DNA from: Bacteroidales bacterium | Lineage (GTDB): Bacteria; Bacteroidota; Bacteroidia; Bacteroidales; UBA932 | Length of the DNA stretch: 64,000 bases | Assembly (NCBI GenBank): GCA_017962375.1 | Contig: JAGCVJ010000014.1 | Coordinates: 106,790 to 170,789, forward strand | Direction: 5' to 3' | Part shown: positions 8,337-59,869 of the stretch, one piece after another | Position numbering within the stretch: position 1 is the first letter of the stretch | Layout: each line of letters starts with the position of its first letter | Notes under the pieces: generated by a model | Seen by the model: only the letters and a program-made list of their open reading frames with translations | Told to the model about the DNA's origin: nothing | Databases searched by the model: none | Position numbers and translations under genes: made by a program

Positions 8337-8343
8337 ATTGTGC

Positions 8344-9768: not shown

Positions 9769-9776
9769 TTCTCAAT

Positions 9777-10766: not shown

Positions 10767-10774
10767 ATTAATTA

Positions 10775-12425: not shown

Positions 12426-12644
12426 TTATTTGTATCTGAAGGATATGCGGCCTTTGGTAAGGTCGTACGGAGACATCTCCACCTTTACCCTGTCGCCAGG
12501 AAGAATCCTGATGTAGTGCATCCTCATCTTGCCTGAAACGTGGGCGATGATTACCGGACCATTGTCCAGTTCCACTTTGAACATGGCGTTGGAAAGTGCT
12601 TCCAGAATAACGCCGTCTCTTTCAATAGCTTCTTGTTTTGCCAT
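12426..12644 (-). CDS. infA: Translation initiation factor IF-1
   Basis: A 72-residue S1/OB-fold protein that blocks the A site during initiation. The family blocks are complete: [28 protein letters not shown] and [11 protein letters not shown]. It abuts map with one nt between and precedes rpmJ. Confidence 0.98.
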
Positions 12645-12645
12645 A

Positions 12646-13419: not shown

Positions 13420-13454
13420 CTTTTACTGACTCCAATGACTCTTTAAACCGTCTG

Positions 13455-14771: not shown

Positions 14772-14775
14772 TTTA

Positions 14776-15225: not shown

Positions 15226-15237
15226 CGATAATCCTCC

Positions 15238-15417
15238 TTAAATTTCCTCAATCGTTACAAGGTGACGAACTTTCTCGATCATGCCCTTGACAACTGGGGT
15301 CAGTTCAACTTCTACGGAATGGTGAATCTTTCTGATTCCTAAAGCCTCGAGAGTGGCTATCTGCCTTTTGGTGGCGCCGCTCTTTCCTCTTACTTGTGTA
15401 ACTTTAACCTTAGCCAT
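15238..15417 (-). CDS. rpmD: 50S ribosomal protein uL30
   Basis: A 59-residue gene between rpsE and rplO. The product starts MAKVKVTQVRGKSG and has the L30 helix TLEALGIRKIHHSV. An AAGGAG motif lies 8 nt before the ATG. Its stop is 12 nt from the rplO start. Confidence 0.96.
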   Translation of the reverse strand: MAKVKVTQVRGKSGATKRQIATLEALGIRKIHHSVEVELTPVVKGMIEKVRHLVTIEEI

Positions 15418-15429
15418 TTCTGAATCTCC

Positions 15430-15954
15430 TTATCCGTTAAATACATTGTTCATAGGAACGCCTCTCAGACCTGCAACGGTGTAAGCGTCTCTCATCTGTG
15501 AAAGGGCTGCGATAGTAGCCTTCACCAGGTTATGAGGGTTGGACGATCCCTTTGACTTTGCAAGCACGTCGTGAATGCCTACAGACTCGAACACGGCACG
15601 CATAGCACCACCGGCCTTCACTCCTGTACCAGGAGCGGCTGGCTTCATGAATACCTCAGCGCCGCCGAACTTTGCAGTCTGCTCGTGAGGAATGGTGTTC
15701 TTGTAGATAGGAACCTTCACAAGGTTCTTCTTGGCATCCTCGATAGCCTTTGAGATAGCTGTGGTAACTTCGTTGGCCTTGCCAAGTCCGTAACCTACAA
15801 CGCTCTTCTCGTCGCCTACCACTACTATAGCCGCGAAGCTGAAGTGACGGCCACCTTTTGTAACCTTGGTCACTCTGTTGATAGCTACCAGCCTGTCCTT
15901 GAGTTCAAGGTCTGTAGTCCTGATATCTTTGTTGTTCTTGTTGTTCTCTGCCAT
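15430..15954 (-). CDS. rpsE: 30S ribosomal protein uS5
   Basis: A 174-residue protein of the decoding region. The double-stranded RNA-binding part (residues 20-85) has [14 protein letters not shown] and [10 protein letters not shown]; the C-terminal half carries the Gly-rich [13 protein letters not shown] block. Confidence 0.98.
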
Positions 15955-15959
15955 AGCTC

Positions 15960-16316
15960 TTAGAATTTAAGACCGCCCTTGCGTGCGGCGTCTGCCAAAC
16001 TTTTTACTCTGCCGTGATAGAGGTAACCTCCACGGTCGAAAGCCACTTCAGTGATTCCCTTTGCTGCGGCAACCTTTGCTGCGGCCTCTCCTACGAGGGC
16101 TGCAACTTCAATCTTGGTCTTGCCAGCGGTCTGAGGAGCAACGTCCTTGTCCAGAGATGAAGCGGCGGCGAGAGTTACGCCATTAATATCGTCGATGAAC
16201 TGAACATAGATCTGCTTATTAGATCTGAACACGCTCATCCTTGGTCTTTCCGGTGTTCCGCTGACAACTTTGCGGATACGGTAACGGATTCTCTGTCTTC
16301 TTTCTATCTTATTCAT
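15960..16316 (-). CDS. rplR: 50S ribosomal protein uL18
   Basis: A 118-residue 5S rRNA-binding protein. The basic N-terminus ([13 protein letters not shown]) is followed by [15 protein letters not shown] and the [15 protein letters not shown] block. A GGAGG motif lies 7 nt before the ATG. Confidence 0.98.
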
Positions 16317-16329
16317 ATCCTATCCTCCA

Positions 16330-16887
16330 TTATTTAGCTGCAGCTGTCTTTCCTGCCTTTCTGCGGAGCACCTCGCCTGCGAACTTGATACCCTTGCCCT
16401 TGTAAGGTTCAGGCTTGCGGAATGAACGCACCTTGGCGGCTACCATACCGAGCAGTTGCTTGTCGGAACTTTTCAAAATGAGAATCGGGTTGGCGCCCTT
16501 CTTTACCTGAGGAACCTCAGCGGTAACCTCGTCAGGGAGCTGGAGCAGAATATCGTGAGAGAAACCGAGGCTGAACTTCAAAAGCTGGCCGTTGGCTTCA
16601 ACACGGTAACCTACACCTACGAGTTCCTGCTTGGTCTGGTAACCCTCAGAAACTCCTACAACCATGTTGTGTATAAGAGCACGATAAAGCCCGTGCATAG
16701 ATCTGTGGCGCGGCTGGTCTGTAGGTCTTTTTACAGTAAGCACGCCTCCCTCAACGGAGACTTCAATATCCGGATCAACCTTCTGCTGAAGCTCTCCCTT
16801 AGGGCCTTTAACCTTTACCACATTATTATCTACGGAGACTGAAACTCCTTGTGGCAGGCTTACAGGTAATTTTCCTATTCTTGACAT
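16330..16887 (-). CDS. rplF: 50S ribosomal protein uL6
   Basis: A 185-residue protein made of two similar halves, located near the factor-binding site. The signature EPYKGKGIKFAGEVLRRKAGK is complete near the C-terminus. Confidence 0.98.
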   Translation of the reverse strand: MSRIGKLPVSLPQGVSVSVDNNVVKVKGPKGELQQKVDPDIEVSVEGGVLTVKRPTDQPRHRSMHGLYRALIHNMVVGVSEGYQTKQELVGVGYRVEANGQLLKFSLGFSHDILLQLPDEVTAEVPQVKKGANPILILKSSDKQLLGMVAAKVRSFRKPEPYKGKGIKFAGEVLRRKAGKTAAAK

Positions 16888-32958: not shown

Positions 32959-32975
32959 CGCCGAATATAAACAAC

Positions 32976-33041
32976 GGTGGACAGATTTGACTGCTTGCAA
33001 CCACACTAAAAAATGCTAAAACGAACCGGGCCCGGAGCATC
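32976..33041 (+). promoter_or_regulatory. SAM-II-like riboswitch in the metK leader
   Basis: The leader contains the conserved blocks of the SAM-II (metA) aptamer at nearly the right spacing: GTGG (32978-32981), GATTT (32985-32989), TTGCAA (32996-33001) immediately followed by CCAC (33002-33005) to close the first helix, then 10 nt and GCTAAA (33016-33021). The published aptamer has GAUUU, UUGCAA, helix strand, about 11 nt, GCUAAA. ATGCT (33014-33018) can also pair with AGCAT (33037-33041) around the palindrome CCGGGCCCGG, giving a fold that excludes the aptamer. By hand the second pseudoknot helix is weak, so this is a strong candidate and not a certainty. Confidence 0.6.
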
Positions 33042-46150: not shown

Positions 46151-46222
46151 GGGAGATTCGTCTAACGGTTAGGACAAGGGATTCTCATTCCCTAAATAGG
46201 AGTTCGATTCTCCTATCTCCTA
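46151..46222 (+). tRNA. tRNA-Glu (anticodon CUC)
   Basis: A 72-nt tRNA folded by hand. A 7-bp acceptor stem has a G-U first pair; a TCTAACGGTTAGGA D-arm, an AGGGA/TCCCT anticodon stem around TTCTCAT (anticodon CTC, reading GAG), and a TTCGATT T-loop follow. CCA is not encoded. The D-arm sequence is characteristic of glutamate tRNAs. It is a single-gene unit with its own promoter and terminator. A UUC tRNA-Glu for GAA is presumably elsewhere. Confidence 0.93.
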
Positions 46223-47143: not shown

Positions 47144-48364
47144 ATGAAACAGTTGAAAAAAGCGTTGTGTATAGCAGGCATGCTGCTGGCAGTGAGTGCT
47201 TTGTGCCGCGGACTGGCAGGATGCGAAAACAAGGAAAAGGCTATGGAACAAAAACAGGCCGCATTTGAAGATTCTCTGCTGGCAATAATCAGAGAAGCCA
47301 ACATCCCGATGATCCAGCTCAAGTACACCGAGCCTTCGGACAGCGTTTACTGCCAGGTGGGCGTAACTCCGTGGTCGACGGAAAAGCCGGTCGAGACAGA
47401 TTCCGCCGCAGTGGGAGAAGAGGCCTGGAAGCAGATGAAGTTCAGCTACAGGGAAACCGGCAAGGCAGATTACGAGAAAGAGGCCGTGTTCCAGGCGGCG
47501 TCGCTGAGTAAAGTGGTGTTCGCATACATCGTGCTGAAGATGTATGACAACGGGGAGATAGACATAGACCGTCCTCTGTACGAATACACAGACATAGACA
47601 GGTTTGTGGACAAGGATATGGCCAAGACGCTGACCGCCAGGCTGATACTTATGCACCGCAGCGGCATCGACGACTGGGCCGCAAGCCCGTCTTCAGACGA
47701 GTGGCCTACCGCCCCTATCAAGTTCACCTTCCCGGTGGATTCCATCTTCGGATATAGCGGAGAGGGCTATGCCTTCCTGCAGAGAGCGGTGGAAGCCATC
47801 AAAGGAAAGGACATTCAGTCCATCGCAAAGGAATATGTGTTCGAGCCTCTGGACATGCCGCTTTCCGCCTACGAGTGGATACCGGAGTTCGAGGGAATTA
47901 CAACGGCTTCTGTAAGGCGTAACGGAGAAAGCCAGGGAGTAAGGCAGTTCCCGAGGCAGAACGTGGCCTACACCCTGAGGACCTGCGCCAACGACTACTC
48001 CAACTTCATAAGGGCGATAATGGACGGCAAGGGACTTTCCCAGGCCAGCCATGCGCTGATGATAACCCCTTGCAGCGGGCCTGCAACCCAGTTCCCTCCT
48101 AAGGTAAGGCCTGTGGACGAGAAACAGTCCATCTTCTGGGGCCTTGGCATCGGCATCGAGGAGAACAAGAATTACGGAAGAGTGCTCTGGCACTGGGGAG
48201 ACAACGGCAACACAAAGGCCCTGTTCGTGATAATTCCGAGCCAGAAGAAAACCCTGGTTTACTTTGCAAACAGCGGAGCCGGACACGACATAACAAATAA
48301 AGTTCTTGATCTTTTCTTCAAAGACGGTCCGATGGACATTCAGGACTGGATTCAGCAAGAATAA
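47144..48364 (+). CDS. Beta-lactamase-family serine hydrolase lipoprotein
   Basis: A 406-residue lipoprotein (lipobox GLAGC, Cys27) with the class C/D-peptidase fold. The SxxK catalytic pair is Ser120/Lys123 (SLSK). The second motif is YSG at 204-206 where class C enzymes have YxN, and the third is the HWGDNG block near residue 345, in place of KTG. The family includes peptidases, esterases and acyltransferases, so beta-lactam hydrolysis should not be assumed. It lies 12 nt before the acyltransferase that opens the ketosynthase cluster and may be its first gene; an acyl-transfer or hydrolysis role on the exported product is possible. Confidence 0.85.
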   Translation: MKQLKKALCIAGMLLAVSALCRGLAGCENKEKAMEQKQAAFEDSLLAIIREANIPMIQLKYTEPSDSVYCQVGVTPWSTEKPVETDSAAVGEEAWKQMKFSYRETGKADYEKEAVFQAASLSKVVFAYIVLKMYDNGEIDIDRPLYEYTDIDRFVDKDMAKTLTARLILMHRSGIDDWAASPSSDEWPTAPIKFTFPVDSIFGYSGEGYAFLQRAVEAIKGKDIQSIAKEYVFEPLDMPLSAYEWIPEFEGITTASVRRNGESQGVRQFPRQNVAYTLRTCANDYSNFIRAIMDGKGLSQASHALMITPCSGPATQFPPKVRPVDEKQSIFWGLGIGIEENKNYGRVLWHWGDNGNTKALFVIIPSQKKTLVYFANSGAGHDITNKVLDLFFKDGPMDIQDWIQQE

Positions 48365-48376
48365 AAACATCAGCAG

Positions 48377-49741
48377 ATGGAATTCAGGAAAACATTCAAG
48401 GGCGGACTTTACTACATGGGCTTCAAGGAGTTCATCCGCTTCCTCTTTAACCATTTTCTCTACAGGAAAGTTTACAAGATCGGAGACGAAAAGATTCTTC
48501 CGGAGGGCAACGCCCAGGTAATCGCATCCAACCACCAGAACTGCCTGGTGGACGCCATTGCCGTTATGCTGTCTTTCAAGGGGCCGGGCAGAAGACCTTT
48601 CTTCTGGGCCAGGGCAGACATCTTTGCAGTCAGCAAGATACTCGAGAAATATCTCAGGTTCCTGGGCCTTATGCCGGCGTTTAGGATGGACCACGAGGGA
48701 ATGGAAGACGTGGGAAAGAACAGCGCCTCTTTTGACGAGAGTTACCATCTTCTCAAGCACGGGCAGAGCGTGATGATATTCCCGGAGGCCGGCCATCAGG
48801 ACAAGAGATTTCTGGGGCACTTCACCACCGGCTACACCACAATGGCATTCAAGGCCGCCGAGCAGACAGGGTTTGAAAGAGAGATCTTCATTCTTCCTGT
48901 GGCCAACCACTATACAGACTACTTCGGGATGAGACGGGAGATGTGCGTAATGTTCGCCGATCCGGTATCGCTGAAGCCATATTACGAGCTGTACAAGGAA
49001 AAACCGAGAACGGCGATGAGGGAGGTCAACCAGCTGGTCAGGACAGCCATTTCTTCAATGATGCTGGATATCCAGGATCTGGACAACTATCCTTCAATAG
49101 ACTTTCTGAGAACCAACTACGGCAAGACATTTGCCGCCCTTAGCGCAAAGCCGTACGATAAGCTTCCCGAAAAACTGACAGTCGAAAAGGATTTCGTGGC
49201 CGCTCTGGGAAATCTTGAAGACCAAACCAGAGAGTCTGTTTACGCCCAGGCGGAAGGCCTCAGGCAGAGTCTGGAAGACAATAAGCTGGAGTTCAAATCG
49301 CTGAAGAAAAAAGTAACCTCAGCGGGTACCATTCTGAAAATCATCGGAATGGTTCTGCTGTTCCCTTTGTGGATATTCTCTCTGTGGCCGAATTTCTTCA
49401 ACTACCAGATTCCTAAGAAACTTACGGCAAGGGTGAAGGACAAGATGCTCTCGTCTTCTTTCCTTCTGGGAGTGAACGCGGTGATAACCATACCTTTGTT
49501 CGCGATAATATCTTTTGTTTTGATCTGGTGCTTCATGACCATCTACATGGCTATAATCTACCTGCTTCTGATGCCGCCTCTGGCACTGTTCTGCTGGTAC
49601 TACACCGAGTGGTGGGATGCGTTAAAGCAAGATTTGCGTTTACTGAAGTTCCATAAAAAATCAAAAATTGCTACCTTGCAGGCTTTAAGGAAAGACAGCG
49701 AGATTTTGGAAGACAGGCTTTGGTCAATATTCAAGAAATGA
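48377..49741 (+). CDS. PlsC-like glycerol/lipid acyltransferase
   Basis: A 454-residue enzyme. The acyltransferase domain fills residues 35-230, with SNHQNCLVDA (a catalytic HxxxxxD rather than the textbook HxxxxD spacing) near 52 and IFPEAGHQD near 138. After a helical linker come two or three membrane segments (about 315-335 and 365-410). The spacing variant HQN/HPN-x3-D is common in Bacteroidota homologues. It would attach an acyl chain to a glycerol-type acceptor. Its stop overlaps the ketosynthase start (ATGA), so the two are coupled. Confidence 0.88.
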   Translation: MEFRKTFKGGLYYMGFKEFIRFLFNHFLYRKVYKIGDEKILPEGNAQVIASNHQNCLVDAIAVMLSFKGPGRRPFFWARADIFAVSKILEKYLRFLGLMPAFRMDHEGMEDVGKNSASFDESYHLLKHGQSVMIFPEAGHQDKRFLGHFTTGYTTMAFKAAEQTGFEREIFILPVANHYTDYFGMRREMCVMFADPVSLKPYYELYKEKPRTAMREVNQLVRTAISSMMLDIQDLDNYPSIDFLRTNYGKTFAALSAKPYDKLPEKLTVEKDFVAALGNLEDQTRESVYAQAEGLRQSLEDNKLEFKSLKKKVTSAGTILKIIGMVLLFPLWIFSLWPNFFNYQIPKKLTARVKDKMLSSSFLLGVNAVITIPLFAIISFVLIWCFMTIYMAIIYLLLMPPLALFCWYYTEWWDALKQDLRLLKFHKKSKIATLQALRKDSEILEDRLWSIFKK

Positions 49742-50958
49742 AAAGAAGAGTAGTTATAACAGGAATGGGTATTTACTCCTGCCTCGGCAAAACTCTGGAC
49801 GAGGTGAGAGACTCCCTTTACAACGGAAAAAGCGGTATTATCTTCGACCCTGTCAGGAAGGAGATGGGCTTTGTTTCAGCCCTTACGGGATATGTGGAAA
49901 GGCCTAACCTCAAGGGCATTCTGAGCCGCAACCAGAGAGTTTACATGCCGGAGCAGGCGCTATTCTCCTACTGCGCCACGGCCGATGCCTTGTCAGCGGC
50001 AAAGATCAGCCAGGACTGGCTGGACAGCCACGAGGTGGGCCTGATCTACGGAAACGACTCTAGCGCGGAGCCTATCGTGGAATGCGTGGATATTATGAGG
50101 GAGAAGAAAGACACCTCCCTTATCGGCAGCGGCGGAATATTCAAGAGCATGAACTCCACCGTCACCATGAACCTGTCCTGCATCTTCAAGCTCAAGGGCA
50201 TCAACCTCACAGTTTCCGGAGCCTGCGCCAGCGGATCTCATTCCATTGGCTGGGGAGCAATGCTCATCCAGAACGGTCTTCAGGATATGGTGATCTGCGG
50301 CGGAGCCCAGGAGACCAACCCATATTCCGTATGCAGTTTCGACGGCATCAGCGCCTTCTCCAAGAGGGAAAGCGAGCCGGAGAAAGCCTCCCGTCCTTTC
50401 GACAAGAACAGAGACGGCCTGGTGCCTTCCGGAGGAGCCGCAACTGTAATACTGGAAGACTATGAGAGCGCCGTCAAAAGAGGTGCCCCTATAATCGCCG
50501 AGGTGCTTGGATACGGCTTCTCCTCCAATGGAGACCATATCTCCGTGCCTAACGTGGACGGCCCTGCCAGAAGCCTGAAGATGGCTCTCTCGCATTCAGG
50601 GATGCAGATTGGCCAGATCGGCTACATCAACGCCCACGCCACCAGTACAATGGTGGGAGACCAGAACGAGGCCAAGGCCATCTACCAGGTCTTCGGCGAC
50701 AACATGCCGCCTGTAACCAGCACCAAGAGCCAGACCGGACACGAGATGTGGATGGCCGGAGCCAGCGAGGTTATTTATTCCATCCTGATGATGAAAAACG
50801 GCTTTATCGCGGCCAACCTCAACTTCGAAACCCCTGACGAAGACTCAGCCAAGCTGAACATCCCGGCAAAGAGAATCGAGAGAAACTTCGACTGCTTCCT
50901 CTCCAACTCCTTCGGTTTCGGAGGCACCAACTCTACATTGATAATCAAAAACCTATGA
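49738..50958 (+). CDS. FabF-like beta-ketoacyl-ACP synthase
   Basis: A 406-residue condensing enzyme with the full Cys-His-His triad: C163 in GACASG, H300 in NAHATST and H335 in KSQTGHEMWMAG. The last block differs from housekeeping FabF, where an Ala/Gly-rich sequence follows the histidine. It sits with a dedicated acyl carrier protein, exporter and LolA, so it is more likely a secondary-lipid synthase than the fatty-acid housekeeping enzyme. No chain-length factor partner is seen. The ATG at 49738 overlaps the acyltransferase stop. Confidence 0.92.
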   Translation: MKRRVVITGMGIYSCLGKTLDEVRDSLYNGKSGIIFDPVRKEMGFVSALTGYVERPNLKGILSRNQRVYMPEQALFSYCATADALSAAKISQDWLDSHEVGLIYGNDSSAEPIVECVDIMREKKDTSLIGSGGIFKSMNSTVTMNLSCIFKLKGINLTVSGACASGSHSIGWGAMLIQNGLQDMVICGGAQETNPYSVCSFDGISAFSKRESEPEKASRPFDKNRDGLVPSGGAATVILEDYESAVKRGAPIIAEVLGYGFSSNGDHISVPNVDGPARSLKMALSHSGMQIGQIGYINAHATSTMVGDQNEAKAIYQVFGDNMPPVTSTKSQTGHEMWMAGASEVIYSILMMKNGFIAANLNFETPDEDSAKLNIPAKRIERNFDCFLSNSFGFGGTNSTLIIKNL

Positions 50959-50962
50959 TAAA

Positions 50963-51211
50963 ATGACAAAAGAAGAAATGATTGCCAAGGCTATCGACAT
51001 CCTGGCAGAAGAATTTGAAGTTGACAAAGAAGACATCACTCCGGATGCTGACATCAAGAAGACCTTGGATCTGGACAGTCTTTCGCTGGTAGACCTTGTA
51101 GCCCTGATTGAAGAGAACTTCGACATAAAGATCAAGGGCACGGACCTTATGCAGACTGCCACCTTCAGCCAGCTGTACGATTTCCTTTACGCAAGAATAT
51201 CTGCAAAGTAA
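50963..51211 (+). CDS. Acyl carrier protein of the ketosynthase cluster
   Basis: An 82-residue acidic four-helix carrier protein. The phosphopantetheine site is Ser39 in LDLDSLSLVDL. It begins 4 nt after the ketosynthase stop and ends one nt before the MMPL start, so it is dedicated to this cluster. Confidence 0.93.
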   Translation: MTKEEMIAKAIDILAEEFEVDKEDITPDADIKKTLDLDSLSLVDLVALIEENFDIKIKGTDLMQTATFSQLYDFLYARISAK

Positions 51212-53749
51212 ATGACCAAGCTAGCCCTGGCCGTATACCGCTTTTTCAAAAAGCACAAGAGTGTATTCTACCTGGTTCTGCTGGGCAGTTTCCTCGTTAT
51301 GGCTTTTCTGGCCAGGAAGATGTATTATGAGGAGGACATCACCAAGCTCCTCCCCGCTACCGAAGCAAACAGCGGAGTGAGATTCGTCTTTGACAAGCTC
51401 AAGGTCAAAGACAAGGTTTTCGTGGAAATGAGAGTCACGGACAGCACCCTGTCCAAGCAGGACGCGCTGGACACCCTGATCTCGGCCAGCAGCCGCCTCT
51501 GCGATTCGCTTCTGGCCCACGACAAGGACAAGGACATAGAAGACATCCTGTACATGGTGGACCCGAGTCTGCTTGAAGACGGCGCGTCCCTGATTCTGGA
51601 CAACGCCCCTTGTTTTCTGGACAGCACTTTCTACCCTCAGCTGGACAGCCGTCTGAACGCGGCGTCTATGGACTCGCTGATGCTCCAGAACGTAGACATT
51701 CTGGAAAATGACGGCAGCGGAATCTGGTACGACATAATCTGCAAGGACCCTCTCTCCTTCCGCAGCATGGCCATGAGCAGCCTGACCAGCGCCGCCGAAC
51801 TTTCAGACGGAAGCGCATCCAAGGCAGAAGGCTCTATCACCCTCACCGATTTCCATCTGTTCTCCTCAGACAGCACCACGGCTCTGGTGTTTATCTCGCC
51901 GGCTTTCAGGGCAATGGACAGCAAGTCCGGAACCAGGCTCATAGACCTCATAGAGGATGAGGCGGAAGACCTGGCGAAGACCTCTCCGGTAGAGGTGCTT
52001 ATAAGCGGCAAGTCCGCCAAGAGCGTGTACACGGCCAAGAGAATCAAGAAAGACCTGGTGATCACGGTCACCATCGCGATGATACTGATTATTCTTATCA
52101 TCGGCTACTGCTTCAGGACGGCCGACACGGTGGGATATATGCTGATGCCTTTGGTCTGGGGTGTGGTGATGGCTGTGGCGGCGGTTTACCTGATTCAGCA
52201 GCAGATGTCTTTCATAGCCCTGGGCATAGGCTGCATAGTGATCGGCGTGGCCCTGAGCTACTGCATCCACATTATCACGCACCACAAATACGTGGCGGAA
52301 GTGGAGCAGGTGATAAAAGACCAGGCCAAGCCTGTAACCCTGGGCTGCATAACCACGGTGGGTTCTTTGCTCGGGCTGATTTTCACCAAGTCTGCGCTTT
52401 TGAGAGATTTCGGCCTTATGGCTTCGTTCGTGATGGTGGGTACAACCCTGGCGGCAATTTTCTTCCTGCCTCAGTTCTTCCGCAACAAGACAGGCAAGAA
52501 AAACGAAAAGGCCTTTGCCGCAATAGAGAGAATCACAACCAGGCCTTATCATAAGCAGACCTGGCTGATAGCGCTGGTGGTCATATTGTTTGTCCTGAGC
52601 GTGGTGTTCACCAGAGGAAGGGCCAACTTCGACACAGACCTCTCGCATCTTTCATACAGCTCGCCTGAGCTTATAGAGGCAGAAAACCTCTATTCAGAAA
52701 AGACTCAGGGCGGAATGCAGACAAAGTATATCGCCGCTCATTCCAAGAATCTGGACAGCGCCCTCTACCTCAACCAGCTGATAGCGCAGCAGTGCCAGAC
52801 TCTCAAGGACGAAGGGAAGATTGCATCTTTCAACAATCTTTCCAACCTGCTTCTGCCTTCTTGGCAGCAGAACCAGAGAATAGAGCTTTGGAACAAATAC
52901 TTTACCCCGGAAAAGAAAGCCAAGGTTAAGGCGCTTACCGCAGCCGCAGCCGAAAGGAACGGCTTTGAGGCGGATATGTTCGACAGTTTCTACCAGGCTC
53001 TGGACAAGGAATACGAGCCTGTTGACGTTTACGGCAGCGAAGTTATTCCGGCCGAGATTATCGGCAACTTCATGGAGAAGAACGACGACGGAACCTATCT
53101 GGTGCTCACTTCCATCAAGGCCAAGGACAATGACGAGCTCTGGAAGGCTTCCGAGATTCTCGCCGAGGGAGGAGAAGAAAAAGACAAGACGCTGGCTTCG
53201 GGCCTTATAGTGATAGATCCTCTGTTCTATACAACCGACATGCTGGAGATAATGGAGCACGACTTCAACACTGTGCTGCTGATATCTTCTCTGTTTGTGC
53301 TGCTGATTCTGCTCGTAGCCCTGAGGAATGTGGTGCACGCCATCATAGCTTTTCTCCCGATGTTCATGAGCTGGTTCCTGGTTCTGGGATTCATGAAGCT
53401 GCTGAACATGGAGTTCAACCTGATCAACATGGTGATTTCCACCTTCATCTTCGGAATGGGAGTGGACTACAGCATATTTGTCATGGACGGCCTTATCAAG
53501 GGAAAGAAGCAGAGCGAGCTTCTCAAGTACCACCGCAGCGCCATCTTCTTCTCTGCTGTGATGCTGATTCTCGCCGTTTCCAGCCTGCTGCTTGCAGTGC
53601 ACCCGGCCATTTCTTCAATCGGACTGTCCACTCTGGCAGGTATGGTTTCAACCATTCTTATCACCTTCACCCTCCAGCCTTACCTGTTCTACAAGTGGGA
53701 GGACTGGAAATCCAGACACCGCAAGGTGAAAAACGCGGATGAAATTTGA
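51212..53749 (+). CDS. MMPL/RND-family lipid exporter
   Basis: An 845-residue inner-membrane protein with the two-fold RND design. Each half has one helix (about 14-33 and 448-466), a large periplasmic domain, then a bundle of about five helices (about 285-410 and 680-830). MMPL proteins of aryl-polyene, flexirubin and mycolate systems export lipids or lipid precursors. Its start follows the ACP stop directly and its end overlaps the FAD enzyme start by 11 nt. Confidence 0.9.
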   Translation: MTKLALAVYRFFKKHKSVFYLVLLGSFLVMAFLARKMYYEEDITKLLPATEANSGVRFVFDKLKVKDKVFVEMRVTDSTLSKQDALDTLISASSRLCDSLLAHDKDKDIEDILYMVDPSLLEDGASLILDNAPCFLDSTFYPQLDSRLNAASMDSLMLQNVDILENDGSGIWYDIICKDPLSFRSMAMSSLTSAAELSDGSASKAEGSITLTDFHLFSSDSTTALVFISPAFRAMDSKSGTRLIDLIEDEAEDLAKTSPVEVLISGKSAKSVYTAKRIKKDLVITVTIAMILIILIIGYCFRTADTVGYMLMPLVWGVVMAVAAVYLIQQQMSFIALGIGCIVIGVALSYCIHIITHHKYVAEVEQVIKDQAKPVTLGCITTVGSLLGLIFTKSALLRDFGLMASFVMVGTTLAAIFFLPQFFRNKTGKKNEKAFAAIERITTRPYHKQTWLIALVVILFVLSVVFTRGRANFDTDLSHLSYSSPELIEAENLYSEKTQGGMQTKYIAAHSKNLDSALYLNQLIAQQCQTLKDEGKIASFNNLSNLLLPSWQQNQRIELWNKYFTPEKKAKVKALTAAAAERNGFEADMFDSFYQALDKEYEPVDVYGSEVIPAEIIGNFMEKNDDGTYLVLTSIKAKDNDELWKASEILAEGGEEKDKTLASGLIVIDPLFYTTDMLEIMEHDFNTVLLISSLFVLLILLVALRNVVHAIIAFLPMFMSWFLVLGFMKLLNMEFNLINMVISTFIFGMGVDYSIFVMDGLIKGKKQSELLKYHRSAIFFSAVMLILAVSSLLLAVHPAISSIGLSTLAGMVSTILITFTLQPYLFYKWEDWKSRHRKVKNADEI

Positions 53750-55238
53750 CGCAGTCATACTGGGAAGCGGACTGGGAGGTCTCCAGTGCGCATACATTCT
53801 GGCCAAAAGCGGAATGAAAGTGTGCGTGGTGGAAAAGAACGGCATAGCGGGCGGCTGCCTGCAGAGCTTCAGGAGAAAGGGAGAGGTGTTTGACACCGGC
53901 TTCCATTATGTGGGGGCTCTGGGCAAGGGGCAGATCCTGGAAAAGCTGTTCAGCTATTTCTCCCTTATGGACCTGCCGTGGCGGCAGCTGGATACTGAGG
54001 GCTTTGACCAGATCTTCTTCGGCGGCAAAAGCTATCTGCTCAGGAACGGTTTCGAGAACTTTGCAGAGGGGCTTTCAGAGCATTTCCCCTCTTCTGCCAA
54101 GCAGATAAAAGCCTATTCCGCCTTCCTCAAAGAAGTGGGAAGCAAGATTACAGACCCGCTTCTGAAGCCCGGCAACGGCATCTTTTCCGTAAACGAGTTT
54201 CTGGGCAAGAATGCCTGGGAATACCTGGAGTCAAATATTGAAGACCCTCTGCTGAGAAACATCCTCAGCGGCAACTCCCTCAAGCTGGAGCTGAGGAAGG
54301 AAACCCTTCCGCTGTACACTTTCGCCCAGATAAACAGCTCCTACATCCAGAGCGCCTGGAGGCTTGAAGGAGGCGGTTCTCTGATTGCAGACAGCCTTGT
54401 ATCCAGCATAAGAAAAATGGGCGGAGAGGTCTATATGTCTTCCGAGGCCGTGGAAATCGCCGAGAAAGACGGCAAGGCAGACTATGTGCTGATTAAGCAC
54501 GGAAAGGAGCCGGAGCGCATCTATTCAGACATTTTCATCTCCAACCTCAGCCCTCAGCTCACACTTTCGCTCCTGAAGGAGAGCAAATGCGTAAGGCCTG
54601 TATTCAGGCACCGCATCCAGAAGCTGGAGCAGACCTACGGGTTCTTCACCGTGAACATCCGCCTCAAGGAAGGAAAGATTCCGTACCGCAACCGCAACTA
54701 CTACTGCTATGCAGAAGGCCTGGACTCCGTCTGGGATATCTCGGAAATGGCGGAGAAGGGCCTTGCAAAAGGAATGCTCATCAGCGAAACCGTGCCTAAA
54801 GGACCGGACAAGAGATGGGCCACAAACATAGACATTCTTGTGCCGATGGCTTTCAGCCAGGTTTCAAAATGGGAGGGCACAACCCCTTCAAGCCGCCCGC
54901 AGGACTACAAGGAGTTCAAGGCCAGAAAGGCTGAAGAGTTCATCGCGATGGCAGACGGCTGCATACCCGGCCTCAAGGAAGCTGTCCAGACATATTACAC
55001 CAGCACCCCGCTTACCTACCAGCATTACACCGGAGCCATAAACGGCACGGCTTACGGCATCCGCAAAGACTGCAACAACCTTCTAAAGACGCTTCTCGCG
55101 CCAAAGACTCCGATTCCGAACCTGTTCTTCACGGGGCAGAACCTGAACCTCCACGGAGTGCTCGGCGTATCGATAACTTCTCTTCTGACTTGTTCAGATA
55201 TTTTAGGAAAAGAGCCGTTGGTATCTTTTTTGGAGTAA
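53739..55238 (+). CDS. CrtI/phytoene-desaturase-like FAD oxidoreductase
   Basis: A 499-residue flavoprotein with the Rossmann GSGLGG dinucleotide motif at residues 9-14, an ECxAGGC-like KNGIAGGCLQSF block near 36, and the C-terminal FFTGQNLNLHGVLG FAD-binding block. It belongs with carotenoid desaturases, isomerases and retinol saturases. No phytoene synthase is present, so its substrate is more likely the polyene or acyl chain made by the neighbouring ketosynthase, inserting or isomerising double bonds. It overlaps the exporter gene by 11 nt. Confidence 0.88.
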   Translation: MKFDAVILGSGLGGLQCAYILAKSGMKVCVVEKNGIAGGCLQSFRRKGEVFDTGFHYVGALGKGQILEKLFSYFSLMDLPWRQLDTEGFDQIFFGGKSYLLRNGFENFAEGLSEHFPSSAKQIKAYSAFLKEVGSKITDPLLKPGNGIFSVNEFLGKNAWEYLESNIEDPLLRNILSGNSLKLELRKETLPLYTFAQINSSYIQSAWRLEGGGSLIADSLVSSIRKMGGEVYMSSEAVEIAEKDGKADYVLIKHGKEPERIYSDIFISNLSPQLTLSLLKESKCVRPVFRHRIQKLEQTYGFFTVNIRLKEGKIPYRNRNYYCYAEGLDSVWDISEMAEKGLAKGMLISETVPKGPDKRWATNIDILVPMAFSQVSKWEGTTPSSRPQDYKEFKARKAEEFIAMADGCIPGLKEAVQTYYTSTPLTYQHYTGAINGTAYGIRKDCNNLLKTLLAPKTPIPNLFFTGQNLNLHGVLGVSITSLLTCSDILGKEPLVSFLE

Positions 55239-55243
55239 CTTTG
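55236..55243 (+). promoter_or_regulatory. -7 promoter element of the lolA-like gene
   Basis: TAACTTTG overlaps the stop codon of the preceding gene and ends 7 nt before the ATG at 55251. It would give an extra, leaderless transcript for the lolA-DUF5686 pair within the cluster. Confidence 0.55.
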
Positions 55244-55250
55244 TGCAATT

Positions 55251-55898
55251 ATGAAAAGAATCTGTTTATTCATCGGTGTTATCGCCGCTTCGCTTCTGGC
55301 TTCCGCCCAGGCTTTGTCGCAGAGCAAAGACCAGGTGATGGCCAACATCCAGAAAAAGAATGAGAGCTACAAGACCGTGGTTTCTTCCTGCACCCAGATC
55401 AAGACCATGAAGGGCATGAAGAAAAACGTCACCAGCACGGGAACCATGTACTTCATCAGAGAAACAAACCAGATGAAGATGCAGTTCACTGGCCATAAGA
55501 ACAACGGCAAAGACAAGGACAACCAGCTGATTATCAACGGAGACAAAGTGGTAATGATAAACGGCGGCGCAAGGAACGTGTTCAACACCAAGGCAGACCA
55601 CAACATGAAGACGCTCCAGTGGACGCTCCTCTACTGCATCAGGGGTCAGATTGCCGAAGCCGCCAAGCTGAACAAGTCGGATATCCAGATGACCACAAAA
55701 GGCGGGTACTATGTTTTTGACATAGACGTTTCCAAGCACGCCAAGGGCCGCTGGAACCATCTCGAGGCCTCCTACAGCACCAAGGACCTGTCGCTGTGCA
55801 TCCTCAAGCTCGAGGAGAAGAACGGCAACACCACCACCTACAACACTCTGGAAAAAGAATATAACGGCGTAGTTGCAAAAGACATTTTCAACTATTGA
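55251..55898 (+). CDS. LolA-like outer-membrane lipid/lipoprotein carrier
   Basis: A 215-residue exported protein with a signal peptide ending around LASAQ (residue 20). The mature part has the LolA half-barrel pattern (KDQVMANIQKKNESYKTV, then FTGH and LIINGDKVVMING). Housekeeping LolA ferries lipoproteins across the periplasm; LolA-like proteins in aryl-polyene clusters are thought to ferry the product. Sited between an exporter and a large outer-membrane protein, this copy fits the latter role. The next gene starts at a TTG that overlaps its TGA stop. Confidence 0.83.
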   Translation: MKRICLFIGVIAASLLASAQALSQSKDQVMANIQKKNESYKTVVSSCTQIKTMKGMKKNVTSTGTMYFIRETNQMKMQFTGHKNNGKDKDNQLIINGDKVVMINGGARNVFNTKADHNMKTLQWTLLYCIRGQIAEAAKLNKSDIQMTTKGGYYVFDIDVSKHAKGRWNHLEASYSTKDLSLCILKLEEKNGNTTTYNTLEKEYNGVVAKDIFNY

Positions 55899-58492
55899 AA
55901 CGATTTGGCAAAATATCGGCTGTATTGCTGGCTCTGACAGTAATGTCTTCATTCGCCCTTGCCCAGACCACAAGGGTCAAGGGGCGTGTCACCGATGCCG
56001 ATACCGGCGATCCTCTGCCGTATGCCAATGTTTTCTTCAAGGGAACCACCATTGGCGTGTCCACTGACGATGACGGGTACTACACCCTGGAAACCAGGAA
56101 CCTTGAAGTGGATCTGCTCCGGGTTGAATATGTGAGCTACATCTCCCAGGAGAAAAACGTAAAGAAAGGAGCCTTCAACCAGGTGGACTTCGCCCTGAAG
56201 CTCGAGGAGAATCTTCTCAGCCAGATTGTGGTGAAGCCGGACTACCGCTATATCCGCTGGATTCTGGGCAACATCGAGAGAAGCAAAAAAGTCAACAACC
56301 CGGAAGAAAGAGACCGCTACCAGTGCCGCCTCTACACCAAGATGGAGCTGGACCTAGTGAATGCGGACACCCAGATAAAGAACAAGCTGCTGAGGAAGAA
56401 TTTCGGCTTTGTGTTCGACTATATGGACACTTCGGTGGTTTCCGGACAGCCTTACCTGCCTATAATGATATCGGAGAACAACTCCATGTTCTACAAGCAG
56501 AAGAATCCGTCGCAGACCAAGGAGGTGATCAAGGCCAGCCGCATTTCCGGAGTGAAAGACGAGGCCACCTTCGCCCAGTTCACCGGAAACATGCACATCC
56601 GCACCAACTTCTACGACGACTTCATAAACCTGTTCAACATCCAGATTCCTTCTCCGGTAAGCGGCCCTAATGTCTTCTACGACTATTTCCTGATAGACAG
56701 CCTTAACATAGACGGCAGGAAAACCTACCATATCCGCTTCCATCCGGCCAAGCTGGTTTCTTCGCCTACATTCGACGGAGAGATGAGAATCGACGCCCAG
56801 GACTGGGCCGTGAGGGAAATCCATGTGAAGCTCAAGAAAGGCTCCAACGTGAACTGGATCAGAGATCTTGTGCTGGATTCCGAATACCAGCTGGTGGGAG
56901 GCAAAGGCTCTTACCAGGGCAAGGATTCGCTCTGGTTCTTCAAGCAGGACAGGATGTACGCAGACTTTTCGGTGACGATGAGAGACTCCTCCAAGCTGAT
57001 GTCGTTCCTGGGAAGAAGGCAATGCGACTATCTGGACCCGCGGTTTGACACGCCTATGCCTGACAGCGTGGCCCGCCTGATGAGCAACGTGACCATGTCT
57101 GCCAATCCTCTGGTCAACGACGAGGCCTACTGGCAGCAAAACCGCCCGTTCGCTCTCAGCGAGAAAGAAAGCAACATCTACAAGATGGTGGATTCCATCA
57201 AGAACGTGCCGCTGTACCGCAATCTATACACCATCGTGAACACCTTTATAAATGGCTACTACAATTTCGACTACTTCGGCATTGGACCGTACTACAAGAT
57301 GTTCAGCTTCAACAATCTGGAAGGCGCCCGATTCCAGTTCGGGGGAAGGACAACGGAAGACTTCTCCAAGAAGCTCAGGCTCTCCGGCCACATAGCCTAC
57401 GGCACCAAGGACAAGAAGTTCAAGGGCAAGCTGATGGCGGAATACATCTTTAACAATATGCCTACAAGGAAGGTGTTTGCCAGCGCCAGCCGCGACATGG
57501 TGCAGATGGGAAGGGGCTCCGACGCCCTCACCGAGGCCAACATCATGTCGTCTTTGCTCAACAAGGGCAACAGCGAGAGGATCAGTCCGGTGAATGAATA
57601 CGCAGTGGGCTACATCCACGAGTGGAACGAGGGCTTCAACAACAGCATAGCCATAGAAGGGCGCCGAATCTACTCCAACCGCTATGTGCCTATGTACACT
57701 CCGGACAGCACCCACATAACCAGCGTGGCGTCTAACCAGGTGCATTACCAGGCCCGCTTCTCCTGGGACGAGACCGTAACCCGCGGAACGTTTGACAAGA
57801 TCTACGTGCTCACTCACTACCCTATTGTGACAATAGACCTTATCAGTGGAATAAAGGGCCTCGCCGACAACGACTTCGGATTCTTCAGAGCCGAGGCCAC
57901 GGTTGACTACTCTCTGCCGCTGCCTCCTGTGGGAACCTCCACATTCCATCTGACCGGCGGAAAAATCATAGGCAAGGTTCCTTACCCTCTGCTCAAGCTG
58001 CACGAAGGAAACGGCACCTACTTCCTGGACAAGAGCTCGTTCGCCTGCATGGACTTCTACGAGTTTGCCTCCGACACCTGGACCACCCTCTTCTACGAGC
58101 ATAACTTCAAGGGCTTCTTCCTTGGCAAGATTCCGCTTATGAAGAAGCTGCAGTGGAGAGAGGTGTTCACCCTGAAGGCCGGCTACGGCACCCTTTCCAA
58201 GGCCAACAACGGCATCTCGGACGGCAAGATCGGCAATCCGCTCAGCACCATCCCGGGAACAGGATCAGGACAGAAATACGAGGGCATGGAAGCTCCTATG
58301 CTCTTCCCGGAGGGCATGAGCTCCCTCAGAAAGCCTTACGTGGAAATGGGCGTAGGCGTAACCAACATCTTCAGAGTCTTCCGCGTAGACGTGTTCTGGA
58401 GAATGACTCACCGCTTCAAGATAGAAGACGGTGTAAAGGTCAAGAAGAACCACCGCGCCGCCATCAACTTCGGCTTCGAGTGGAGCTTCTAG
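55895..58492 (+). CDS. DUF5686 outer-membrane protein with carboxypeptidase-regulatory-like domain
   Basis: An 865-residue protein: signal peptide to about residue 23, a beta-sandwich carboxypeptidase-regulatory-like domain (about 26-105, GRVTDADTGDPLPYANV block), then a long beta-rich region ending INFGFEWSF, typical of an outer-membrane barrel. It starts at TTG, overlapping the TGA of the LolA gene (TTGA). DUF5686 proteins are widespread in Bacteroidota and of unknown role. Placement here suggests an outer-membrane receiver for the LolA cargo, or simple linkage. Confidence 0.85.
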   Translation: MKRFGKISAVLLALTVMSSFALAQTTRVKGRVTDADTGDPLPYANVFFKGTTIGVSTDDDGYYTLETRNLEVDLLRVEYVSYISQEKNVKKGAFNQVDFALKLEENLLSQIVVKPDYRYIRWILGNIERSKKVNNPEERDRYQCRLYTKMELDLVNADTQIKNKLLRKNFGFVFDYMDTSVVSGQPYLPIMISENNSMFYKQKNPSQTKEVIKASRISGVKDEATFAQFTGNMHIRTNFYDDFINLFNIQIPSPVSGPNVFYDYFLIDSLNIDGRKTYHIRFHPAKLVSSPTFDGEMRIDAQDWAVREIHVKLKKGSNVNWIRDLVLDSEYQLVGGKGSYQGKDSLWFFKQDRMYADFSVTMRDSSKLMSFLGRRQCDYLDPRFDTPMPDSVARLMSNVTMSANPLVNDEAYWQQNRPFALSEKESNIYKMVDSIKNVPLYRNLYTIVNTFINGYYNFDYFGIGPYYKMFSFNNLEGARFQFGGRTTEDFSKKLRLSGHIAYGTKDKKFKGKLMAEYIFNNMPTRKVFASASRDMVQMGRGSDALTEANIMSSLLNKGNSERISPVNEYAVGYIHEWNEGFNNSIAIEGRRIYSNRYVPMYTPDSTHITSVASNQVHYQARFSWDETVTRGTFDKIYVLTHYPIVTIDLISGIKGLADNDFGFFRAEATVDYSLPLPPVGTSTFHLTGGKIIGKVPYPLLKLHEGNGTYFLDKSSFACMDFYEFASDTWTTLFYEHNFKGFFLGKIPLMKKLQWREVFTLKAGYGTLSKANNGISDGKIGNPLSTIPGTGSGQKYEGMEAPMLFPEGMSSLRKPYVEMGVGVTNIFRVFRVDVFWRMTHRFKIEDGVKVKKNHRAAINFGFEWSF

Positions 58493-58522: not shown

Positions 58523-59869
58523 ATGAAACAATACATCGAAAAGAACAAAGACCGTTTCTTTGAAGAATTATTCTCTATTCTCAGAATTCCTTCCATACGC
58601 GCCAAGAAAGAGCACAAGAGCGATATGCTCAAGTGTGCAAAAAGGCTCGTGGAGCTTTTGAAGAAGGCCGGGGCAGACGAGGCCGGCGTTTATCCCACTG
58701 CCGGAAACCCTGTAGTCTTCGGCAAGAAGATCATAGACCCAAAGGCCAAGACCGTAATGGTTTACGGCCATTATGACGTGCAGCCTGCCGAGCCTCTGGA
58801 GAAGTGGAATTCCGATCCGTTCGAGCCAGTTATTCACGACGGAGCCATCTGGGGAAGAGGCGCCAACGACGACAAGGGCCAGCTCTTCATGCACATAAAG
58901 GCCTTCGAGTATCTGGTCAAGACCAAGCAGCTCAAGCATAACGTCAAGTTCATTTTCGAGGGAGAAGAGGAAATCGGAAGCCCTTCGCTTCCGGCCTGGG
59001 TGAAAAAGAACAAGAAGATGCTCGATAGCGACGTGATCCTTGTCTCCGACACCACCATGATCAGCGAGAAAGTGCCTTCCATCAACTGCGGAATGAGAGG
59101 CCTGGCCTATCTTGAAGTAACCGTCACCGGCCCTAACAAAGACCTCCACTCCGGCCATTACGGCGGTGCTGTGGCCAACCCTATCAATGTCCTCTGCGAC
59201 ATGATTTCATCTCTGATAGACAAGAACGGCAAGGTTAAGGTAAAGGGCTTCTACGACGATGTTGTCAACCTCAGCAAGGCAGACCGCGCCCAGCTTGCCA
59301 GGGCTCCTTTCAACTTGAAAGAATACAAGAAATTCCTCGGCATCGCTGAGATAAAGGGAGAAAAAGGCTACACCACCCTTGAGAGAACCGGCATCAGGCC
59401 TTGCCTTGACGTATGCGGCATCTGGGGCGGCTACACCGGAGAAGGCGCCAAGACCGTGCTTCCTTCCACAGCCCACGCCAAGATATCCATGAGGCTCGTT
59501 CCTAACCAGGACAGCGCCAAGATAACCAAGCTATTCAAGCAGCACTTCCTGTCCATAGCTCCTAAATACGTTAAGGTAAAAGTTGAGGAGAAAGAGGGCG
59601 GAAACGGATTCCTTATCCCTATCACATCCCCTGCTTTCCAGGCAGCTTCTAAGGCCATGAAGGAAGTTCTGGGCATAGAGCCGGTTCCAAGCCGCGGCGG
59701 CGGAAGCATCGCCGTTCTGGCAGACATGCAGAAGATCCTTGGCACAGATCCTCTGCTGATGGGATTCGGACTGGAAAGAGACACCATCCACTCCCCTAAC
59801 GAGAGCTACCTGTTAAAGCAGTTCTTCGGCGGAATGGAGTCAATCGCCCTGTTCTACAAGTATTACTAG
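58523..59869 (+). CDS. M20-family cytosolic dipeptidase
   Basis: A 448-residue zinc peptidase of the CNDP/DapE-like group. The metal and catalytic blocks are VYGHYDVQP, GRGANDDKGQ, EGEEEIGS and, in the second half, SPNESY near the C-terminus. No signal peptide, so it cleaves imported dipeptides in the cytoplasm. The 30-nt gap after DUF5686 has no terminator, only an ATCGCGAT octamer, so read-through from the cluster is likely. Confidence 0.93.
   Translation: MKQYIEKNKDRFFEELFSILRIPSIRAKKEHKSDMLKCAKRLVELLKKAGADEAGVYPTAGNPVVFGKKIIDPKAKTVMVYGHYDVQPAEPLEKWNSDPFEPVIHDGAIWGRGANDDKGQLFMHIKAFEYLVKTKQLKHNVKFIFEGEEEIGSPSLPAWVKKNKKMLDSDVILVSDTTMISEKVPSINCGMRGLAYLEVTVTGPNKDLHSGHYGGAVANPINVLCDMISSLIDKNGKVKVKGFYDDVVNLSKADRAQLARAPFNLKEYKKFLGIAEIKGEKGYTTLERTGIRPCLDVCGIWGGYTGEGAKTVLPSTAHAKISMRLVPNQDSAKITKLFKQHFLSIAPKYVKVKVEEKEGGNGFLIPITSPAFQAASKAMKEVLGIEPVPSRGGGSIAVLADMQKILGTDPLLMGFGLERDTIHSPNESYLLKQFFGGMESIALFYKYY

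What the first reader, a model, noticed from the sequence alone, without database searches (positions are those of the whole stretch)
47144..58492. Compact ketosynthase-ACP-MMPL-desaturase-LolA cluster unlike the standard polyene set
Eight genes on one strand, most overlapping or within 4 nt, encode a serine hydrolase lipoprotein, PlsC-like acyltransferase, FabF-like ketosynthase, dedicated ACP, MMPL exporter, CrtI-like FAD enzyme, LolA-like carrier and DUF5686 outer-membrane protein. Known aryl-polyene/flexirubin clusters also carry a ketoreductase, dehydratases, thioesterase, a second ketosynthase or chain-length factor and an ammonia-lyase; none is here. With one ketosynthase and an FAD desaturase, the chain could be made by few condensations and unsaturated by desaturation instead of dehydration, then acylated onto a glycerol-type anchor and delivered to the outer membrane. 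That chemistry is inference; the gene order and motifs are seen.
Basis: partly seen in the sequence, partly recalled or inferred. Interest (0 to 1): 0.8.

Follow-up and report, generated by a model that had tools for sequence, protein, structure and literature searches.

The report
One part of a split polyene pathway
A gut-bacterium gene cluster that looks like an unusually short pigment-making set is most likely one part of a known kind of outer-membrane polyene pathway whose other parts lie elsewhere in the same genome, while relatives that have only this cluster keep a fuller, untested version of it.

Summary
The eight genes are real, on one strand, and under purifying selection. The ketosynthase (KS1) is not FabF; it belongs with the FabB/ApeR-like ketosynthase of aryl-polyene and flexirubin clusters. 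The same genome holds most of a flexirubin-type set elsewhere: contig C2 carries a FlxB ketoreductase, dehydratase-type genes, an elongating ketosynthase (KS2), a probable chain-length factor, LolA and MMPL; contig C8 carries a third ketosynthase, an ACP and an AMP ligase. C2 lacks KS1, and a genome search finds no other KS1.

In this genus, 14 of 14 genomes with KS2 and a single, compact-type, separately placed KS1 have the reduced cluster (no dehydratase or ketoreductase seen; one contig is cut after CrtI). Three genomes without KS2 carry dehydratases and ketoreductase in the cluster. Best reading: a component of a split polyene pathway, not a dehydration-free route. The 14 are one clade, so this is one evolutionary event. 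The stand-alone fuller form (one polyene ketosynthase, CrtI-like enzyme) is the more novel object and is untested. Product and chemistry are inferred.

The parts
47144..48364 (+). serine hydrolase lipoprotein (beta-lactamase/AmpH-like family), upstream gene of the reduced locus in the window's lineage
   Evidence: PF00144 93.9 bits; SLSK at 120, HWG at 350, lipobox LAGC at 24; next door in L082-L086 and in 11 of the 12 reduced loci of the genus fetched (the twelfth contig starts at PlsC); 3 of 34 named loci with enough flank
48377..49741 (+). PlsC-type acyltransferase with hydrophobic C-terminal segments; presumed transfer of the chain to a glycerol-type anchor (inferred)
   Evidence: PF01553 51.2 bits; found in 23 of 34 named loci with enough flank
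49738..50958 (+). KS1, FabB/ApeR-like ketosynthase; Cys-His-His triad and Lys present; start ATG 49738 overlaps the PlsC stop
   Evidence: trees; residue table (FabB numbering Cys163, His298, Lys328, His333)
50963..51211 (+). acyl carrier protein, DSL phosphopantetheine site at residue 38
   Evidence: PF00550 51.2 bits; 30 of 34 named loci
51212..53749 (+). MMPL/RND-type inner-membrane exporter, about 12 hydrophobic segments
   Evidence: PF03176 72.2 bits; 18 of 34 named loci
53739..55238 (+). CrtI/CrtD-like FAD enzyme (desaturase, isomerase or other oxidoreductase; reaction unknown)
   Evidence: TIGR02733 129 bits, TIGR02730 80 bits, both far under cut-off; 29 of 34 named loci; in the tree outside the clade of CrtIs from flexirubin-type cores
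55251..55898 (+). LolA-like periplasmic carrier
   Evidence: NCBIfam LolA2_flexi 76.8 bits, E 1.4e-21, below cut-off; PF03548 23.3 bits
55895..58492 (+). DUF5686 outer-membrane protein (TTG start); neighbour in the window's lineage, not a constant member of the locus
   Evidence: PF18939 190.9 bits; 3 of 34 named loci; a 52% homologue lies on a different contig from the compact locus in G027
58523..59869 (+). M20 dipeptidase, 30 nt downstream; flank, probably not part of the pathway
   Evidence: NF006053 505 bits; conserved next door in L082, L083, L085, and after MMPL in L087

Best explanation
The locus is a reduced member of a Bacteroidales family of one-ketosynthase polyene loci (fullest form PlsC-KS1-ACP-DH-TE-ApeI-MMPL-CrtI-KR-LolA). 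In this lineage it works as one part of a flexirubin/aryl-polyene-type pathway spread over three places in the genome. KS1 with its ACP does early condensations, as ApeR does. The KR (FlxB), dehydratase-type proteins, elongating KS2 and probable chain-length factor on contig C2, and the KS3-ACP-AMP ligase on contig C8, supply reduction, dehydration, later elongation and starter activation. The CrtI-like enzyme modifies the conjugated chain (isomerisation or further desaturation). PlsC and the LpxL-type enzyme put the chain on a lipid anchor. MMPL and LolA carry it to the outer membrane. Shown: gene content, phylogeny, purifying selection, and the association of the reduced form with a genome that has KS2 but no second KS1. 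Inferred: every chemical step, cross-talk between loci, export and product.
For: C2 carries FlxB (NF053542, 386 bits, cut-off 340), KS2, a weakly KS-like probable chain-length factor, DH-type proteins, LolA and MMPL; C8 carries KS3-ACP-AMP ligase. In genus g1, 14 of 14 genomes with KS2 and a single compact-type KS1 placed apart from the core have a locus with no DH, ApeI or KR seen (G641's contig ends after CrtI); 3 of 3 genomes with no KS2 and enough contig have DH, ApeI and KR in it. In G656 the compact genes run 34 nt into HAL-ACP-LpxL-rSAM-DH-TE-KS3-ACP-KS2... on one strand, with no second KS1. In 13 loci chosen because KS1 lies near KS2, KS1-CrtI-KR sits beside core genes; all 13 of these KS1s fall in the compact-type group (99) of the tree, and each of these genomes has one KS1. 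In family f1, KS1 and KS2 co-occur in 134 genomes; KS1 alone 14, KS2 alone 6, neither 230, of 384. ApeR complements ApeO-ApeC in vitro (PMC8358021). The KR of G000 and G003 does not group with the compact KRs of its own genus.
Against: The 14 reduced genomes fall in one clade, so the association is one event. G646 has KS2 and still keeps DH, ApeI and KR in the compact locus. Two reduced-lineage genomes show no KS2: G659 (85% complete, contig cut inside ACP, so the rest of the locus is unseen) and G352 (1.3 Mb; its KS3 fragment and a lyase lie on one contig that ends there). In L087 CrtI, LolA and DUF5686 are missing and MMPL is in two frames. The KR tree is not clean: the group of 18 that holds the G000/G003 KR is mostly core KRs but includes five compact ones. 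The reduced locus keeps its own MMPL, LolA and PlsC although C2 has its own, which would suit a separate product. Only a HutH-range lyase is found in G000 and in four of the seven other reduced-type genomes searched, so a working aryl pathway is not certain. The CrtI-like protein is short (360-393 aa) and distant in 7 of the 13 joined loci. FAS KR and DH could serve instead of C2. No expression or chemistry data. G000 is 87% complete.
Confidence: 0.58

Rival explanations
1. Independent second pathway: KS1 and its ACP make a short polyenoyl chain of their own, borrowing KR and DH from fatty-acid synthesis or from C2, and the locus's own PlsC, MMPL and LolA deliver a product distinct from the aryl polyene.
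For: Relatives without KS2 exist (G131, G223, G182, G260 and, by survey, G286; G643, G648, G654 in the genus) with DH and KR in the locus; G646 has a compact locus with DH and KR plus a core with its own KS1; the window locus keeps dedicated export genes. ApeR-type KSs alone make polyenes of up to four double bonds, and alterochromide clusters lack a KS-CLF (PMC8358021).
Against: In the window's lineage no second KS1 is found, and 134 of 140 KS2 genomes in the family have a KS1, so the core would seem to need KS1; compact-type KS1 is physically joined to core genes in G656 and in 13 chosen loci.
Confidence: 0.28
2. One reading: few condensations and unsaturation by the FAD enzyme in place of ketoreduction and dehydration.
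For: No KR or DH in the locus; CrtI-like enzyme kept under selection against L082 and L085 (dN/dS 0.12 and 0.13); a similar proposal exists for anammox/Desulfotalea clusters (PMC2649909, passages).
Against: Fuller relatives carry DH, ApeI and KR beside the same kind of CrtI; several flexirubin-type cores also carry a CrtI together with KR and DH; a FlxB KR and DH-type proteins exist in this genome.
Confidence: 0.05
3. KS1 is a FabB-like fatty-acid enzyme making the anchor's acyl chain or ordinary lipid rather than the polyene.
For: Nearest characterised relative by sequence is FabB; the other three ketosynthase matches in G000 are FabF, KS2 and KS3; E. coli apeR deletion still made the primary APE lipid and was grouped with late, attachment-type intermediates (PMC8253772, passages).
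Against: KS1 scores 377 bits against a FabB cut-off of 630; it is not found in 211 of 294 genomes of the order at E 1e-75 and tracks KS2, unlike a housekeeping gene.
Confidence: 0.08

Closest known systems
Flexirubin polyene cluster (flxA-flxY of Chitinophaga pinensis; PMC3992019)
   Same: Lyase-reductase-ketosynthase order at the start (FlxA, FlxB, FlxC) matches core loci of relatives; LolA and exporter present; C2 KR passes the FlxB model
   Different: The window locus has KS1, ACP, CrtI-like, PlsC, MMPL and LolA but no KR, DH, TE, lyase or ligase; the core lies on other contigs
Aryl-polyene cluster of E. coli/Xenorhabdus/Acinetobacter (ape genes; PMC8253772, PMC8358021)
   Same: FabB-like KS beside KR (ApeQ-ApeR), KS plus chain-length factor, ApeM/ApeL-type export, ApeD-type acyltransferase
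   Different: A CrtI-like enzyme is not in the published E. coli gene list; here the ApeR-like KS sits in a separate locus
FASII-like clusters with phytoene-desaturase-like genes proposed for ladderane/anaerobic PUFA synthesis (PMC2649909, PMC4790861)
   Same: KS, ACP and CrtI-like enzyme together in anaerobes; the two CrtI homologues tested did not make lycopene
   Different: No radical SAM enzyme in the window locus; MMPL/LolA export genes instead; sequences not compared here
Alterochromide cluster (named in PMC8358021)
   Same: Short aryl polyene made without a KS-CLF pair, as a stand-alone KS1 locus would have to do
   Different: Not compared by sequence here

Membership tests
flexirubin/aryl-polyene polyene cluster | ApeR/FlxC-type FabB-like ketosynthase | tested here: met
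   KS1 clade of 49 rows, SH-aLRT 100, holds KSs of HAL-KR-KS1 cores; nearest outgroups FabB then ApeR (quick tree with long branches); core context in another order of the class
flexirubin/aryl-polyene polyene cluster | ketoreductase and dehydratases in the same locus | tested here: not met
   nothing better than E 0.15 in 43-64 kb; KR and DH-type proteins lie on C2
flexirubin/aryl-polyene polyene cluster | elongating KS with chain-length factor in the same genome | tested here: met
   C2 KS2 by PF00109/PF02801; the CLF candidate is only weakly KS-like, PF13723 24.6 bits, cut-off 25
flexirubin/aryl-polyene polyene cluster | FlxA-type ammonia-lyase in the genome | tested here: not met
   only aromatic lyase in G000 passes hutH (588.9 bits, cut-off 539) beside hutI and scores 350.6 on FlxA (cut-off 700); genome 87% complete
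flexirubin/aryl-polyene polyene cluster | coloured aryl-polyene product | not testable with these tools
   no chemistry
flexirubin proper | DarA/DarB dialkylresorcinol genes | not tested
housekeeping FabF/FabB | passes curated FabF or FabB models | tested here: not met
   FabF 325.5 of 493.75, FabB 377.3 of 630; a separate FabF-like KS at C8:101858 groups with E. coli FabF
carotenoid desaturase CrtI/CrtD | passes curated CrtI/CrtD models | tested here: not met
   TIGR02733 129.4 of 549.7, TIGR02734 63 of 238.1
ladderane-type cluster | radical SAM enzymes in the cluster | tested here: not met
   none among the eight genes

The most novel reading that the evidence does not exclude
The stand-alone form (fullest: PlsC-KS1-ACP-DH-TE-ApeI-MMPL-CrtI-KR-LolA), in genomes whose only other ketosynthase match is FabF and some of which show no aromatic lyase, makes a previously unrecognised class of short, non-aryl, CrtI-modified polyenoyl lipid of the outer membrane in gut Bacteroidales; the window locus is that pathway merged with an aryl-polyene pathway by complementary gene loss.
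Probability: 0.33. Interest if true: 0.7.

Novelty: new variant of a known kind. Interest (0 to 1): 0.48.

Why it matters
[quoted passage not shown] Here nature has separated the ApeR-like ketosynthase from the core, joined it to the core, or left it as the only one. That makes its role and the role of the unexplained CrtI-like enzyme testable by comparing relatives. It also warns that cluster-by-cluster genome mining would read this locus as an odd new pathway when its partner genes sit on other contigs.

Tried and rejected
KS as FabF: rejected, it is FabB/ApeR-like. A self-sufficient desaturase-only route: rejected as the leading idea because fuller relatives carry DH, ApeI and KR. Decay of the locus: rejected for the window, dN/dS 0.00-0.13 for all nine genes against L082 and L085; five of nine values against L083 were saturated. 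Decay is possible in two relatives: in G003 the MMPL and CrtI frames are each split in two, and in L087 MMPL is in two frames and CrtI and LolA are gone; described only, not mended. Starter choice from the KS pocket: I had no AbApeR sequence, so I used E. coli ApeR as a stand-in; its Tyr at FabB position 134 is Ile or Val in every KS1 row read, core-type and compact-type alike, with Phe next to it; position 198 does differ (Met in 15 of 22 core-type rows; Val, Ile or Thr in all 58 compact-type rows, window included). This does not decide aryl against non-aryl starters. KR tree: the G000/G003 KR falls away from the compact KRs of its own genus, so I dropped the idea that the KR moved from the compact locus into C2; the tree is too mixed to prove a core origin. 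Bacteroidetes-type promoter pattern (recalled): 2 matches in the window, none near the locus, 0.8 expected. Structure prediction of the CrtI-like and DUF5686 proteins was not available, so no fold evidence. Literature on rumen arylpolyenes gave listings only, nothing read. My KS2 profile cross-matches KS1 and FabF; labels were taken by best score, and a KS1 fragment (L075), FabF (L045) and some fused KS2 genes (L222, L235) carry a wrong KS label. The careful KS tree did not finish; quick trees are used.
Full report
WHAT IS THERE. The eight genes lie at 47144-58492 on the + strand with gaps of 12, -4, 4, 0, -11, 12 and -4 nt. Pfam and NCBIfam confirm the named families, except that the ketosynthase (here KS1) is FabB-like rather than FabF-like, and the LolA call is just under its Pfam cut-off. 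The catalytic residues are present. dN/dS for the nine genes (M20 included) is 0.00-0.12 against L082 and 0.04-0.13 against L085; five of nine values against L083 were saturated.

THE REST OF THE GENOME. The window is contig C7 of a 2.17-Mb, 87%-complete genome; its closest named relative is a MAG titled 'uncultured Bacteroidia bacterium isolate RUG11482' (KS1 96%). Contig C2:8668-22725 holds kinase, nucleotidyltransferase, KR, LpxL-type, DH, ACP, KS2, a KS-like probable chain-length factor, SMR, LolA, DH-glycosyltransferase, MMPL, esterase and PlsC-type genes; C8:51651-54887 holds KS3-ACP-AMP ligase (several names rest on similarity to relatives or on recalled family features only). The C2 KR passes the flexirubin FlxB model at 386 bits against 340. 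The C2 DH itself has no Pfam match; the DH half of the fused gene is supported by PF21089 and PF07977. The only aromatic lyase found in the genome passes hutH and lies next to hutI.

WHERE KS1 FALLS. In a quick maximum-likelihood tree of 68 rows, KS1 forms a clade of 49 rows (SH-aLRT 100) with E. coli FabB and then ApeR as nearest outgroups, and FabF outside; these outgroup branches are long. Within it a compact-type group (35 rows, 100; 42 rows, 99, in a second tree of 62 rows) contains the window. Core-type KS1s are those in HAL-KR-KS1-ACP-LpxL... clusters. In the class outside the order, KS1 matches are 63-67% identical, and three such loci looked at have HAL, KR, KS1, ACP and LpxL in that order, two with one extra gene between HAL and KR. 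That order matches flxA (lyase), flxB (reductase), flxC (ketosynthase) as described for Chitinophaga pinensis (PMC3992019, abstract and passages).

THE COMPACT LOCUS ELSEWHERE. On the same strand these 34 carry ACP 30, CrtI 29, DH 24, PlsC 23, ApeI 19, MMPL 18, KR 16, TE 15, LolA 14, and none carries KS2, CLF, KS3, HAL or AMP ligase within the stretch counted. At least six of the 80 have core-type genes next door: L149, L154, L155 and L160 on the other strand, L123 and L126 on the same strand (the last two were among the 46). L082, L083 and L085 are the only ones of the 34 with CrtI but none of DH, TE, ApeI and KR. They come from genomes that also appear as G661, G651 and G645 (matching contig lengths), so they are not independent of the genus counts below.

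STAND-ALONE FORMS. In 294 order genomes KS1 (E 1e-75) is in 83 and KS2 (E 1e-65) in 77; nine have KS1 without KS2 and three KS2 without KS1. Of the nine I looked at five. G131, G223 and G182 carry PlsC-KS1-ACP-DH-TE-ApeI-MMPL-CrtI-KR-LolA in one run; G260 has PlsC-KS1-DH-TE-ApeI-CrtI-KR without recognised ACP, MMPL or LolA; G286 has KS1-ACP-DH-ApeI-CrtI-KR-TE. G131, G223, G182, G260 and G019 (a family genome) have just two ketosynthase matches each at E 1e-15, FabF and KS1, and G131, G019 and G260 show no aromatic lyase; G223 and G182 have one in the HutH score range.

THE GENUS AS A NATURAL EXPERIMENT. Genus g1 has 29 genomes: 23 with KS1, 19 with KS2; the six without KS1 also lack KS2. Of the 23: 14 (G000, G003, G640, G641, G645, G647, G649, G650, G651, G653, G657, G660, G661, G662) have KS2 and one compact-type KS1 in a separate locus without DH, ApeI or KR (G641's contig ends after CrtI); G643, G648 and G654 lack KS2 and carry DH, ApeI, MMPL, CrtI, KR and LolA (no ACP or TE was called in G643); G646 has KS2, a core-type KS1 and a compact locus with DH, ApeI and KR; G027 has KS2, a core-type KS1 and a compact locus with DH and ApeI but no KR; G656 has the compact genes, with DH, ApeI and KR, running 34 nt into a core, and one KS1; G045 and G664 have only core-type KS1; G659 has no KS2 match, sits in the reduced lineage by its gene context, and its contig ends inside ACP. 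Of the 14, the KS1s placed (the window, G003 and nine more) form one clade (100). Separately, of the six genomes behind L082-L087, five have KS2 besides KS3; the sixth (L086, 1.3 Mb) has only a KS3 fragment at a contig end; each has one KS1 match. The KRs of G000 and G003 pair up (100) and lie in a group of 18 (92) that is mostly core KRs but includes five compact ones, away from the compact KRs of their own genus (98). I read this as complementary retention: KS1 from the compact locus, KR from the core. It is one clade, hence one event, and which side lost what is inferred.

OTHER LINEAGES. In 13 loci that I chose because KS1 and KS2 lie close, KS1-CrtI-KR sits beside core genes (L223-L235; in L232 a lyase lies between CrtI and KR); all 13 KS1s are compact-type, each genome has one KS1, and no other KR was called in the stretch. 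The CrtI-like protein is only 360-393 aa in seven of them. G419 and G464 have a compact locus with DH, TE and KR plus a separate core without KS1 or KR in the stretch fetched. In 384 family genomes KS1 and KS2 occur together in 134, KS1 alone in 14, KS2 alone in 6, neither in 230 (Fisher p 3e-78, not corrected for kinship).

MECHANISM. Published work says ApeR is a FabB-like homodimer encoded beside ApeQ, makes polyenes of up to four double bonds in vitro, and raises the throughput of ApeO-ApeC (PMC8358021: abstract, passages and sections 7 and 10). ApeR has also been called required for initiation, while an E. coli apeR deletion still made the primary APE lipid (PMC8253772, passages). I infer that KS1 plays the ApeR part for the C2 core, and in stand-alone genomes does all condensations. 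The CrtI-like enzyme occurs in core and compact loci; the nine core-type CrtIs form one clade (100) and the window's lies outside it. Its reaction is unknown; two anammox CrtI-like proteins failed to make lycopene (PMC4790861, passages), and desaturation was proposed for them (PMC2649909, passages). Cinnamoyl-type clusters are proposed to isomerise, cyclise and desaturate polyenes (PMC6510318, passages).

NOVELTY. Eight full-text searches listed no paper that I could recognise as being on this locus or on a split flexirubin/aryl-polyene pathway in Bacteroidales; the library holds only openly licensed papers and most hits were seen as listings only. I file it as a new variant of a known kind. 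Product, cross-locus supply and export are untested.

Noticed in passing
window 32971-33029 (+): SAM-II riboswitch (59.5 bits) just before an ORF that passes the metK (methionine adenosyltransferase) model.
   Followed up: partly
window 46151-46222 (+): tRNA between the 822-aa ORF (FeoB-like, recalled) and the 232-aa ORF at 46320, which has no Pfam or NCBIfam match.
   Followed up: no
L044 (G000 C8) 6652-9888: KS3, ACP and AMP ligase separated from the rest of the polyene genes; in G003 the KS3-type gene is inside the core cluster.
   Followed up: partly
G000, G348, G349, G350, G351: These reduced-type genomes show only an aromatic lyase in the HutH score range (confirmed as hutH for G000), while G003, G352 and G353 have one in the lower score range of the cluster lyase (confirmed as FlxA for G003). 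Possibly a ready-made aromatic acid from plant feed is used.
   Followed up: partly
L046 (G003) 12437-16699: MMPL and CrtI frames are each broken in two in a single-contig genome; sequencing error or decay not resolved.
   Followed up: no
L087 1-6974: A reduced-lineage locus without CrtI, LolA and DUF5686: MMPL in two frames is followed directly by the M20 gene.
   Followed up: partly
L042 (G000 C2) 8668-10869 and L047 (G003) 1657-3941: A kinase-like and a nucleotidyltransferase-like gene (named from memory of the families) precede the core in both genomes; link to the pathway unknown.
   Followed up: no
L042 1061-8551: Two very large predicted proteins (1457 and 937 aa) lie on the other strand next to the core.
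   Followed up: no
L223-L235: A minimal KS1-CrtI-KR module recurs beside cores in several genera of the family, with a shortened CrtI-like protein in seven of thirteen, suggesting these three enzymes work together.
   Followed up: partly
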